From Owenia fusiformis (lineage: Eukaryota > Annelida > Polychaeta > Sabellida > Oweniidae): a stretch of 64,000 nucleotides of DNA. Positions 47,401-53,400 of the stretch are shown piece by piece (position 1 is the stretch's first letter; the number at the start of each line of letters is the position of its first letter). The notes under the pieces were generated by a model that saw only the letters and a list, made by a program, of their open reading frames with translations, had not been told where the DNA came from and did no database searches. A program made the translations under genes and the position numbers. The stretch lies in assembly GCA_903813345.2 (NCBI GenBank), contig CAIIXF020000009.1, positions 622,001 through 686,000 of the forward strand, written 5' to 3'.

Positions 47401-50400
47401 ATATTACCCAGGATTCATCATCCTTTATTACATGTAAATATTACCCATGATTCATCATCCTTTATTACATGTAAACATTACCCATGATTCATCATCCTTT
47501 TTACATGTAAACATTACTCATGATTCATCATCCTTTATACATGTAAATATTACCCATGATTCATCATTCTTTATTACATGTAAACATTACCCATGATTCA
47601 TCATCCTTTATACATGTAAATATTACCCATGATTCATCATCCTTTATACATGTAAATATTACCCATGATTCATCATCCTTTATACATGTAAACATTACCC
47701 ATGATTCATCATCATCATTTTACATTTTTCCTTATTTGATAACTTAGCCTTAATGTCTAGGACATACCAGCCCAGTGGCGGAGACCCTCCCATGTATGCC
47801 GCCTGCCCGTATGGGTTTACCCGTAACAGCAGCTGCAGCTTGCAAATCACCATATCCTACACACAGTTAGATTATGTATTTACCCATAGTTAGATTATGC
47901 ATCTTCGTTCACTCGGCTCCCGTCGCAAGTGAAGACCGAGCGTGCGAAGATATAGATTATGGGGATGTTTTATTTCATAGAACTTATGATTATCTGATGT
48001 TTAACTAATTCATTTGACTATCCATTAATGTACATTTGACAATAATTCAACTAATTTGGCTATCATTTAACCTATTTGACTATTGTAATACATAATGTTT
48101 TGACTATCCATTAACTAATTCAACTATTTAACCTTAGCATATTTGACTTATCAATTAACTTATTTAATGATCTATCCACTTTTATAATAGGTATTGACTC
48201 ACTATCGGTCAATCTGATTATTGCTCGATGTACAGTAAATCAAATGAAACGTTATCTCAGTTTCCCTCTGTTATATGGAGACCTTGTCTAATTCAAACAC
48301 CACAGGGACTGGCTTAAAGTGTTCATATTAGCAGGTGTTCACATTTCAATTTTTTTACGAAGTGTTCATTATCCAGATTTTGAAATTGGGAATAAAAAAA
48401 TATATATACTTAGAGGTGTTCTGCTTCAGATTAGAGAGGTATTTGGATATACAGGTTTCACTGCAATTTTTGTTAACAACAACAGAAATGATTAATGACA
48501 TGACTTCCTTGATGGGTGAACTCGAATAACACCATGGCCTTTCCAAGAACAGGTACATAGGAGTCTTCTTTGCATCAGCCACAACATTGTATATGTATGG
48601 TAACATCTATTTCCAAGAACAGGTACATAGGAGTCTTCTTTGCACCATCCACAACATTGTATATGTATGGTAACATTTTTCCAGGTTGGTTCATTCAATT
48701 CAAGGTCTATCTATGTTTAGCAACAACAGGTCTCAATAATTTTTCATGTTAATAACACCCTTTCCAATACCCTGATTTCAGGTTCTTTAAAGAGACCTTC
48801 ATCAACAAAAAAATATCTTCATTTACATGTACAGTAAAACCTGTATATCTGAACACTTCTATAATCTGACACCTCTCAATGTGAACACTTTTTCAGTCCA
48901 ATTTTCAGTCTCCCATGACTTCCATGTGAAAAGTCTTGAATGTGAACACCTACCAATTTAAAACACCTTTGGTTACTCCCATTGGCATCCAGATTAGAAA
49001 GGTTTTACTGGACCAGGTTCTGACACTGTAGCTAAGTAATTTTGGATAAAACATTTAAGAGGTCTGCCTCTTTAAGAGTAAAATGTATGATTACTACCAA
49101 ATGAACTATAAGCAACTTTAGATGGCCTTGGCATTATCCAGGGAGGTTACCATGACCCTTCTAGTTTTATGGCAGTTTGAGACACACCTCTTATCTACTT
49201 TTTAGTTTGTTTTATGGATTATTTACTCTGAATTATGAACAGGTCATCCTTTGATCTCTACCCTACCAAATAACCATGATCTGGATACAAGAAATTTTGA
49301 AGATATTGAACTTTAACTTTTGAAGGAGAAATAGTTTGGAAGGGAGGGGGATATTCTTTTAAAATCACTGATGCAATATACTAGTCTAGTAATCTTATTT
49401 TCAACTTGAGGTACAGTCTACTGCATGGCCTCCAGAAAAGGCCGGATTGAGTTATTTCTCCATAATATATACCCCAATTGCTGTGTTTTCTAAGAGCTTT
49501 GAACCAGACTGAGAAAGACTTGGCCTGGATTCAATGAATTTATCATAAGGGATAAGAATTGGTAAATCAATGATGCAATATAATCTGATTTCTTAATTAG
49601 TGCATATATAAGACAGTCTACTGCATTGCATCTAAAAAAGGTGGTTTGAGTTATTTCTCCAAATATTTATTTGGCTATATTACCTGTGATACAATAGGTA
49701 AGCTGTCAAATAAAAATGGCAACATATCTTACAGGCTGCATATTGAATACTGACTTAACGTAAAATGAGGGTACCTACTAATTATTACATAGACTTACTG
49801 GAATATGCTGCTTTAACCATATCAATAATACATGTAGATGTTTCCCCAGTTCATCAGTATCAAAGATTCCAACCAAGAGCCCCTATATATCATGTAAATA
49901 ACTTAATAATCTAGTCCATAATTTAATTATTGCTTTTTGTGCTATCTTGGAGCAATACGTGTAATCGAGTTAAGTAACTCTTATGCTCCACTCATCTTTA
50001 CAGTTCACGTTCACAAGCAATATGATCAGTTTAGAACAGAAAAGTTGAAAATGGCACGGTTTATCATGATGGTTTAAGGAAGGAAGGACTGAAAAAAATT
50101 CCACATTAGTTCGTGTTTAGTAGGTGTCCACATGTCGCAGTTTTACTGGTATGAATGGCCAAATCAATCTTAGAAATGTTCCTCAAAGATGTTTACTTTA
50201 GAAAGGTTGATGTTTACAGACTTACAATACAGCAGAAGAATGATTTTTTCATTTCTGATATGTAAAAACTTTGCCTTGCTCATGTATGAACATAACAAGA
50301 GGCGGACACTTAAGAATAGAAGTACAAAATGTCAATACTTTAAGCCAATCCTAATAGCATTCCATATTGATACGTTAATCTTCTTTTGTCTTGCGAAGAA

Positions 50401-53400
50401 TTATTCTGTTACTCAAACTATTTTTGCTTCACCTAGAAGAAATAATAGAAGGCTGCTATCTAACACAATGAGAGCATTCACTTCAGACTAGTTTTAGTGT
50501 ATATCATATATTTATCATTACAAGGTATGCCTCTGGGTGAAACCTGACCAACTTACTGATCTACATGTTATAAATAACAACAGCATATTCTACATAAGAG
50601 ATTGAAGTTATACATCTACACAAGTTAGTAACTGCTGGTAAAGTTATACACAACCCATCAAAGGTACACAGGGAGATATGTTGAGTACTAAAATAGTACT
50701 CATGGCATTTTAACACTAATTGAGTACTAATTTCATCAAATATAAGTACTAAATGAGCATAATGACATGAGTGCTGATTTACTGCATTTTTAGTACTAAA
50801 TGAGTACTCATATCACTGAATTAGTACGAAATTAGCACTCGTGGCATGAGTGCTCATGAGCGCACTTTTGCCAGAGTACTAATTTTGTACTATTTTGGTA
50901 CTCAGCATATCTCCCTGTGTATAATCCAGACCCTGTTTTAAAGAGCACAGAAGCTGAATGCAAGACAACATTGAACATTAAGATTGTATTTGAAATAGAT
51001 TCATTTATATAATTTTGCTAATCTCTGAAAGCAAGTCCTGTTTATGCATACTCTATACTCCGTAATCTGTGCCAACACACATTGGTTTTAAATTCCATCT
51101 TTGCACCATTAAGATGCTTTTCAGAATTACTTATTTGCATAACTTCCTCAACACGCAACGCCAACACTTTTTCATTGACTTAATTTTCAATCCTTAATTT
51201 TTAATCTTTGAAAAAAAGCCACCATGTTCAAGCTGTTTTAATAATATTCGTATGTGCATAACATAATTTCTGGCAAGAAAGGATTCATGGGTATAACATA
51301 GAATCTGTGAGGCCTAATATTTAGAGAAAAGTTAAACTTATAAGTCAACAAGCTAAAAATGTTTTAACTAAAATTTAACTATTGGTTATCTTAAATTTGA
51401 AAATAAAACATGGAATTAAAAGATAATACAAAGAAGAATAAGAAGCGTAAGCAGATCATTCCAACCATGGAAAGCGATAACATGAAACACGAACACGTGA
51501 GCAAGATAGATGGAGCTACTCACTCGCCCCGTGGCTGAGATGCGTCCATGGATACCTCCTTGCGTAATAGGCTTTCCAGTGACGCACGCATTAGCGTTCA
51601 GGTCCTTATCCCCTAATTAACAATAAACGGGCAACTACATCAACAGATATTAATCAAACTAAAAAGATGTGCAATCGATGGGTTTGGGTTTAAAAGATTT
51701 GTGAGGTCGGTCAAGAAATTATTGTAATGACACTGTGATGTGGTGACACCATAATGTGATGTGATGATATCTACATGTGATGACACCATAATGTGATATG
51801 ATGACATCATATTGTGATGTTATGACACCATAATGTGATGACATCATTAAGTTTATCTGAAAGTAAAGGTTAGCACACAAATATAAGGGGCGTCCCTGAA
51901 ATTATAATAATTCCAAACATTTATTGGACAGTCCTCGTACATGTTACTTGCACACCACTACTATCAGTAAGAGGAAAATAGCATTTTGCTTAAGGGTTCT
52001 TATAATTGGACCCCTTCAGCAAGTGCATTCATACCTTTAGTGATAAGTCACACATTTTGTAATAAGAAATGAGGTTCAAAGGATGAGGGGGGTGGTACCC
52101 CATGGGGGTTAAAGACTGTGCAATTCAAAGCTTTGAAGTAGATACAACATGCATATTTCACAGGAGTTTGAGTAGTGTCATTTCAGAATCACACATCCTA
52201 GAAATAAATCAAAAACAAAATTGAAACGTATCCTCCACCCTGAAAGGGATCATATCAAAATATCATTACATTTTGAAAGTTGGTTTCCTTTGGGATGTGA
52301 GTGAGAAATTATAAAAGGGGAAGGGAAATATTAATTCCAGTTTGGAATTAGAGGGGGGGGGGAGTTATTATATCTTACATAGAATTAACCCTCTATTTTG
52401 TAATTTTTCTATTTTGATATTTTCCCTTACTTCATGTTTGAACCAGTTGGAGCTGCCTGTAGTAAAATGTTCAAATAGACTGCACCTTTAAAAGATCAAC
52501 TTAACTTGCAGAAATAAAATAAATTCCGTTTAATGGTTAATGTACTGAGCTGGTTTTATTAACAACAGGCACCAGGCCTCTGAGCCTGTTTGGCGAAATC
52601 ACAAGTTGCAATCATTTCCATGTAAAAATATAATTTCCAATAATTTTACCAGTTATTATTGTACATATTGTCAGAGACTAAAACCAAAGCATCTATGATT
52701 ATATTTTACTTATGGCAACCCCAAACTGGTCTTACACGAGGGTGAGAGGATTCCTTGACTAGTACATATGAGTTCAATGGGTTTCAATCGTTACTCACTC
52801 TCCCTGTTGCGGACACTCTGCCATGGATTCCTCCCTGAGTAATAGGCTTACCCGTTACACAGGCGTACGCATTGATGTTCCCGCTCCCTGATATTTACAT
52901 ATTATACATTACATTAAAACAAAACATGTATAGATATATAAAACATAAAATAAATTCAATATAATGTTTTGTGATATTACTTCTTTGAAATGATATCGAG
53001 AGCAAAACTACTTTATGTTGATTAATGTGAACTTGTCGATTATATCTGTCTAAAAATTTATGTAATACAGGTATTACAAGTTTTTCTTTTATTATAAAAC
53101 AGTTATCATGTTAAAAATCATTTTAAAAAAATTTGGTCAAAATCGATAATCTCCAATAAAAATGAAATTACTTAAAAATAGAGCCCTGACTGAGTTGACA
53201 ATTAAATGGGACAATGACATTTGACTTGTGTGTGACCTTTGTCCTCGAATGACCAGTTGTTGTTTTCATTTCTTGCAATGTGTTATGTAAATGCCCTGGA
53301 TGTATTTCAGCCGGCTCAAGCCAAGTTGAAAAGGCATAGGTTTACCCATAAAATGGATCTGATTGGATTATAATATTAAGTCCACTTTTCAAGTATACTG

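What the first reader, a model, noticed from the sequence alone, without database searches (positions are those of the whole stretch)
47768..52887. Three tandem mutually exclusive GDH exons, one lacking a GTP-site arginine
C1, C2 and C3 are each 89 bp, phase 1 to 0, with their own splice sites, and encode the same 30-residue segment (bovine 188-217). Joining two of them breaks frame (178 bp), so only one can be used. All keep the GGIHGR and SATG residues that bind substrate and cofactor, but C3 ends in Leu where bovine Arg217 (human Arg221, a known hyperinsulinism site, from memory) contacts GTP. Other GTP-site residues (Arg261, Arg265, His450) are intact in the shared exons. Inference: exon choice makes GTP-sensitive and GTP-insensitive GDH, a splicing switch on nitrogen and energy metabolism.
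Basis: partly seen in the sequence, partly recalled or inferred. Interest (0 to 1): 0.93.

Follow-up and report, generated by a model that had tools for sequence, protein, structure and literature searches.

The report
Three interchangeable exons in glutamate dehydrogenase
An animal's glutamate dehydrogenase gene carries three interchangeable copies of one exon, one of which lacks an arginine that grips the inhibitor GTP, so cells may choose by RNA splicing how strongly this central nitrogen enzyme obeys GTP; no RNA or enzyme data were available to prove it.

Summary
On the minus strand C1 (52887-52799), C2 (51612-51524) and C3 (47856-47768) are each 89 bp with AG/GT borders, phase 1 to 0, and encode bovine GDH residues 188-217. 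Only single inclusion keeps the frame; none, each pair, or all three give early stops. They sit in an open 547-codon GDH gene, the only GDH locus found in the genome.

The copies are old and constrained: pS 0.79-0.87, pN 0.16-0.27. C3 has Leu at bovine 217, a GTP contact whose human change R274C (=R221C) lowers GTP inhibition (PMC11050691). Of 80 bacterial relatives 17 have Leu there, so Leu217 probably permits catalysis. C3 also departs at 193, 197, 204 and 205, so its effect may be broader.

Most likely: a splicing switch between GTP-braked and GTP-relaxed subunits, as OGDH exons 4a/4b do for calcium. Unproven: no RNA, no biochemistry. Searches for docking RNA pairing and splicing motifs found nothing.

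Beyond the finding: the gene's 3' half (exons E-K) is duplicated downstream, both halves looking constrained (18 synonymous, 2 nonsynonymous differences).

The parts
52799..52887 (-). Exon C1, 89 bp, Arg at bovine position 217
   Evidence: AG/GT borders, open in phase 1 to 0, 24 of 30 residues as in bovine (identities counted by me)
51524..51612 (-). Exon C2, 89 bp, Arg at bovine position 217
   Evidence: AG/GT borders, open in phase 1 to 0, 25 of 30 residues as in bovine
47768..47856 (-). Exon C3, 89 bp, Leu at bovine position 217
   Evidence: AG/GT borders, open in phase 1 to 0, 20 of 30 residues as in bovine
63317..63403 (-). Exon B, shared upstream neighbour, ends in phase 1
46657..46755 (-). 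Exon D, shared downstream neighbour, starts in phase 0
63696..63896 (-). Exon A of the GDH gene; exon 1 with start codon lies outside the window at G000:C9:686568-686157
26368..45859 (-). Shared 3' exons: E 45859-45722, F 45517-45380, G 45135-45055, H 42942-42819, I 28530-28439, J 27305-27243, K 26487-26368 with stop; carry R261, Y262, R265, K289, E292, K446, D447, H450
10445..18356 (-). Second copy of the 3' half, E'-K' (E' 18356-18219, F' 17927-17790, G' 17558-17478, H' 16545-16422, I' 11920-11829, J' 11219-11157, K' 10564-10445 with stop); no second A-D found

Best explanation
C1, C2 and C3 are old tandem copies of one GDH exon, used so that exactly one enters each productive mRNA. Transcripts with none, two or three of them stop early, so the reading frame filters out errors (shown from sequence). 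The exon carries residues 188-217: part of the substrate/cofactor loop (GGIHGR, SATG) and three GTP-site residues (209, 213, 217). C1 and C2 give a GDH with the GTP site complete. C3 replaces Arg217 by Leu, removing a main contact, and so should give a catalytically active subunit that GTP inhibits less (inferred). Exon choice by tissue, stage or stress would set how strongly glutamate oxidation is braked by GTP; because GDH is a hexamer, mixed hexamers could give graded control (inferred). What chooses the exon is unknown.
For: Exact borders, equal length and phase, and early stops for every other inclusion pattern. Selection: C1-C2 pS 0.82 pN 0.16, C1-C3 0.87 and 0.27, C2-C3 0.79 and 0.27; in 20000 neutral simulations per pair none kept as many residues. 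The gene is open from start to stop (547 codons) and is the only GDH locus found, so regulatory variety cannot come from a paralogue seen here. Leu aligns with Arg217; R217 is among the main GTP hydrogen-bond residues in simulation (PMC8228935, passages); human R274C is listed as decreasing GTP inhibition (PMC11050691, passages). Leu217 occurs in 17 of 80 bacterial relatives with R211 and T215 kept in 80 of 80. Snail GDH is GTP-inhibited (PMC3318891, passages).
Against: No RNA evidence for any of the three exons. C3 also differs at 193, 197, 204 and 205, where C1, C2 and bovine agree or nearly so; Cys197 is 80 of 80 and Gln205 70 of 80 in bacterial relatives, and Arg204 occurs in 0 of 80, so the change is not confined to GTP binding, and C3's new Arg204 could in principle offset the lost Arg. 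The bacterial loci lack the animal GTP site, so they bear on catalysis only. No regulatory RNA pairing or splicing-factor motif was found. The role of GTP for mollusc GDH in vivo is called unknown by the authors.
Confidence: 0.57

Rival explanations
1. The exons are alternative and functional, but C3's main effect is not GTP relief: its changes at 193, 197, 204 and 205 alter substrate affinity, cofactor choice, another effector, stability or subunit contacts, and Leu217 is one of several changes.
For: Four further C3-specific changes, at positions conserved in C1, C2 and bovine and largely in 80 bacterial relatives: 193 Asn/Asp 76, 197 Cys 80, 205 Gln 70, 204 never Arg.
Against: The loop residues GGIHGR and SATG are unchanged, and the one change at a documented allosteric contact is at 217.
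Confidence: 0.22
2. C3 is a decaying or rarely used exon copy; only C1 and C2 matter.
For: C3 is the most divergent copy (20 of 30 residues as in bovine against 24 and 25) and changes sites that are otherwise conserved.
Against: C3 keeps frame, length and splice sites, and its differences from C1 and C2 are concentrated in synonymous sites (pS 0.79-0.87 against pN 0.27). The pairwise test does not exclude recent relaxation on the C3 branch.
Confidence: 0.12
3. The cluster mainly controls dose: joined or skipped transcripts are destroyed, so the exons act as an on/off device.
For: All inclusion patterns other than single give early stops.
Against: An on/off device does not need three coding copies kept under selection.
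Confidence: 0.05

Closest known systems
OGDH exons 4a/4b in vertebrates (PMC7969005: abstract, part 1 of 2 of the introduction, and one discussion section read)
   Same: Mutually exclusive homologous exons in a mitochondrial dehydrogenase of the same pathway; one version carries the effector site (calcium), the other does not.
   Different: Other enzyme and effector; two exons; exclusivity enforced by distant branch points in a short intron, whereas here the introns are 1186 and 3667 nt.
GLUD2 of apes and Bb8 of Drosophila (PMC10812971, PMC11050691, PMC5192433, PMC10652781: passages)
   Same: A second GDH form with weakened GTP control; GLUD2 is GTP-resistant, for Bb8 it is proposed.
   Different: Separate genes made by duplication, with other residues changed; here one gene with alternative exons.
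coq-2 exons 6a/6e in helminths, annelids and molluscs (PMC7434440, passages)
   Same: Mutually exclusive homologous exons that change what a mitochondrial enzyme does, including in lophotrochozoans.
   Different: Changes substrate choice, not an allosteric site; two exons.
Oyster AOX with duplicated exon 10 (PMC5589949, abstract)
   Same: Duplicated exon in a mollusc mitochondrial enzyme, the more divergent copy rising under air exposure.
   Different: Terminal exon, other enzyme, no allosteric site.
Splice variants of mammalian GLUD1 (PMC5192433, passages)
   Same: Several GDH isoforms from one gene.
   Different: Alternative first exons or deletions of exons, not substitution of homologous exons.
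PKM exons 9/10 (recalled, no call)
   Same: Exclusive exons that decide whether a metabolic enzyme answers an allosteric effector.
   Different: Glycolytic enzyme, activator rather than inhibitor, two exons.

Membership tests
Mutually exclusive tandem exons (criteria in PMC5740500, passages) | Neighbouring internal exons with sequence similarity, similar length and the same reading frame | tested here: met
   89 bp each, same phases, 50-60 of 89 nt and 20-23 of 29 residues identical
Mutually exclusive tandem exons (criteria in PMC5740500, passages) | Joint inclusion gives a frameshift and premature stop (one accepted enforcement) | tested here: met
   All three pairs, the triple and the skip give stops
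Mutually exclusive tandem exons (criteria in PMC5740500, passages) | Splice-junction reads from each exon to the flanking exons and no productive joined reads | not testable with these tools
   No RNA data held
Animal mitochondrial GDH (GLUD1 type) | Full-length homology to GLUD1 including the antenna, and both ELFV dehydrogenase domains | tested here: met
   C3 form 876 bits to human GLUD1, query 44-547; PF02812 and PF00208 in the C1 and C3 forms, though these models hardly cover exon C
Animal mitochondrial GDH (GLUD1 type) | Enzyme activity and GTP/ADP regulation | not testable with these tools
   No biochemistry
OGDH-like effector switch by exclusive exons | One exon version keeps the effector contact, the other loses it | tested here: met
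   Arg217 in C1 and C2, Leu in C3; at the level of sequence only
OGDH-like effector switch by exclusive exons | Measured difference in effector response between isoforms | not testable with these tools
   Needs recombinant enzymes
Exclusivity by docking-selector RNA pairing (Dscam type, recalled) | One intronic site able to pair beside every variable exon | tested here: not met
   In each of 3 scans of about 1 kb of candidate docks, 2 of 10 shuffles reached the best three-way duplex; most of the introns was not scanned and no related species was available
Exclusivity by steric interference | Intervening intron or donor-to-branch distance too short | tested here: inconclusive
   Introns 1186 and 3667 nt; AG-free zones 90 (C1), 20 (C2), 44 (C3) nt argue against, but branch points were not mapped

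The most novel reading that the evidence does not exclude
One gene makes a graded family of GDH subunits: three allosteric exons (C1 and C2 with the full GTP site, C3 GTP-relaxed) combined with two interchangeable 3' halves (E-K or E'-K'), each with its own stop and 3' end. Mixed hexamers, set by splicing and 3'-end choice, would tune GTP braking by degrees and replace the paralogue route taken by apes (GLUD2) and proposed for flies (Bb8).
Probability: 0.25. Interest if true: 0.8.

Novelty: new variant of a known kind. Interest (0 to 1): 0.62.

Why it matters
GDH links amino-acid and energy metabolism, and loss of its GTP brake at this residue is listed among human hyperinsulinism variants. 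An animal that keeps versions with and without this contact in one gene would show the brake as a setting chosen by splicing, an outcome otherwise known here through separate genes (GLUD2; proposed for Bb8), and would give natural isoform pairs for testing how GTP control and catalysis are coupled. Of my ten searches of open-licence PMC papers, six asked about GDH splicing; judged by listed titles and abstract openings, and by passages of one review on GDH forms, none reports exclusive GDH exons. Searches listed only 15 of 171 and 12 of 51 papers; subscription papers and preprints were not covered.

Tried and rejected
Chance similarity: rejected (E-values, codon test). A second GDH gene supplying another isoform: none found, within the gaps of G000. 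U12/U2 incompatibility: donors gtgagt and gtatgt do not look like U12 sites (consensus recalled). Steric interference: introns long. Docking-selector RNA: no signal. Splicing-factor motifs (Rbfox, Nova, STAR/QKI, PTB, CELF, MBNL; strings recalled): lowest P 0.06 in 60 tests against 200 Markov shuffles. Structure prediction: not tried, since a spliced protein is not letter for letter in the DNA; so whether C3's Arg204 lies near the GTP site stays open. One search used wrong phases for exons H, I and K; its counts are replaced. In one search the rows for exon A are invalid (wrong borders, window edge). One search, a bacterial-type scan, says nothing here. A haplotype misplaced in tandem cannot be excluded for the 3'-half duplication.
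Full report
WHAT IS THERE. The window is G000:C9:622001-686000 of a 498-Mb genome in 525 contigs. A glutamate dehydrogenase gene runs right to left on the minus strand. A tblastn with human mature GDH placed its exons and scripts fixed the joins. Exon 1 lies just outside the window (C9:686568-686157, read from L001), followed by A, B, one of C1/C2/C3, D, E, F, G, H, I, J and K. With any one C exon the frame is open for 547 codons to the stop in K. The C3 form scores 876 bits to human GLUD1 (query 44-547 against 55-558). 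The C1 and C3 forms carry the same two Pfam domains at nearly equal scores, but these models hardly cover exon C. Whole-genome searches found GDH exons at this locus only (2, 34 and 7 matches, all on C9 between 638 and 687 kb; the 34 include many fragments of a minisatellite). Gaps or withheld stretches could hide others.

THE THREE EXONS. C1, C2 and C3 are separated by introns of 1186 and 3667 nt; the B-C1 intron is 10429 nt and the C3-D intron 1012 nt. All are 89 bp with AG/GT borders. Single inclusion keeps the frame; skipping, each of the three pairs, and all three together give premature stops. This makes only single-exon mRNAs productive. [quoted passage not shown]

THEY ARE OLD AND CONSTRAINED. 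Nucleotide identity is 60, 50 and 52 of 89 (C1-C2, C1-C3, C2-C3). Nei-Gojobori proportions are pS 0.82, 0.87, 0.79 and pN 0.16, 0.27, 0.27; for C1-C3 the differences by codon position are 9, 6 and 23 of 29. In 20000 simulations per pair with uniform neutral changes none kept as many identical residues, although 38-44% stayed free of stops, so the open frame alone is weak evidence. Saturation forbids dating. The test is pairwise and does not prove constraint on each branch; for C3 the excess of about 7 nonsynonymous changes over the C1-C2 pair is small beside the saturated synonymous change, so most of its history was probably under constraint (my estimate).

RESIDUE 217. phmmer aligns C3+D with bovine GDH 188-250 and sets C3's last residue, Leu, against Arg217. 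In molecular dynamics of GTP-bound GDH the main hydrogen-bond residues are R217, R261, Y262, R265 and K289, with S213, D447 and H450 minor (PMC8228935, passages). Human R274C (mature R221C, bovine 217) is listed as a GTP-binding residue whose change decreases GTP inhibition (PMC11050691, passages) and in exon 6 of a table of hyperinsulinism variants (PMC9887739, passages). The other GTP residues are present in the shared exons, and H209 and S213 are present in all three C exons. So C1 and C2 subunits have the full site and C3 lacks one main contact.

IS LEU217 COMPATIBLE WITH AN ACTIVE ENZYME? The 17 Leu loci bear record titles of Bacteroidota, Kapaibacterium, Gemmatimonadetes, Verrucomicrobiales and Beijerinckiaceae. 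These proteins lack the animal GTP site (265 is Glu in 68, 213 is Glu in 76), so they suggest tolerance of Leu217, not GTP response, and being related they are not independent counts. Against a pure GTP effect, C3 also has Ala at 197 (Cys in 80 of 80), Ala at 205 (Gln in 70 of 80), Gln at 193 (Asn or Asp in 76 of 80) and Arg at 204 (0 of 80); its Ala at 195 is common (19 of 80). I therefore leave 0.22 to a broader change.

MECHANISM OF CHOICE. Not found. Three partial scans for three-way intronic pairing stay within shuffles (2 of 10 reach the best value in each). Six motif classes show nothing below P 0.06 in 60 tests. C1 has the lowest pyrimidine share before its acceptor (0.40) and the longest AG-free zone (90 nt) of the exons B-K, a hint at most.

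CONTEXT. Purified land-snail muscle GDH is inhibited by low-micromolar GTP, but its role in vivo is called unknown (PMC3318891, passages). Release from GTP control evolved through a gene copy in apes (GLUD2) and is proposed for fly Bb8. Exon-choice switches in mitochondrial enzymes are known: OGDH 4a/4b for calcium, coq-2 for quinone type, in annelids and molluscs too, and oyster AOX. This case joins the two lines: exon choice acting on the GTP site of GDH. Six of ten paper searches asked about GDH splicing and listed no earlier report (two of these lists were capped).

BEYOND THE FINDING. Exons E-K occur again downstream as E'-K' (18356-10445) with intact splice sites and stop, inside a block at 7.8-19.35 kb that matches 23.6-46.6 kb in pieces of 79-94% identity. 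The coding halves differ by 18 synonymous and 2 nonsynonymous changes (pS 0.100, pN 0.0035; residues 307 and 333). If one copy had been neutral since duplication about 29 nonsynonymous changes are expected, and 2 or fewer has a chance of 2.7e-6. No second A-D was found, so a used E'-K' would have to be joined to D. AATAAA or ATTAAA signals follow both stops. Two haplotypes misplaced in tandem would give the same codon pattern; the divergence argues against this but does not exclude it.

VERDICT. New variant of a known kind.

Noticed in passing
window 18356-10445 (minus), block 7780-19351 matching 23643-46578: The 3' half of the GDH gene, exons E-K, is duplicated downstream without a 5' half; both copies look constrained (18 synonymous, 2 nonsynonymous differences).
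   Followed up: yes
window 42890-44414; also about 16493-16811: The acceptor and first part of exon H are amplified into a 77-bp minisatellite of about 20 copies (a few copies at H'), which repeats the 3' splice site many times before the real exon.
   Followed up: partly
window 31250-32908 and 14192-15700 (minus): Two related long ORFs (552 and 502 codons) lie inside the H-I and H'-I' introns. By eye they resemble Mab21/cGAS-like proteins, but neither has a Pfam match at 1e-3 and the first has no PDB match at 0.1.
   Followed up: partly
window about 33166-40144 (plus): Retroelement-like ORFs (reverse transcriptase and recombinase by eye, not tested) lie in the H-I intron and are absent from the other copy of the block.
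   Followed up: no
window about 50665-50921: A dispersed repeat of about 260 bp in the C2-C3 intron, with matches listed on 11 of contigs C1-C12 and on C355 (133 matches listed over the whole query, 40 of 2377 candidates scored).
   Followed up: no
L010, L023, L026, L030, L031, L035, L040, L041, L045, L054, L057, L059, L064, L071, L073, L074, L077: Bacterial relatives of animal GDH with Leu at the position of bovine Arg217 (17 of 80).
   Followed up: partly
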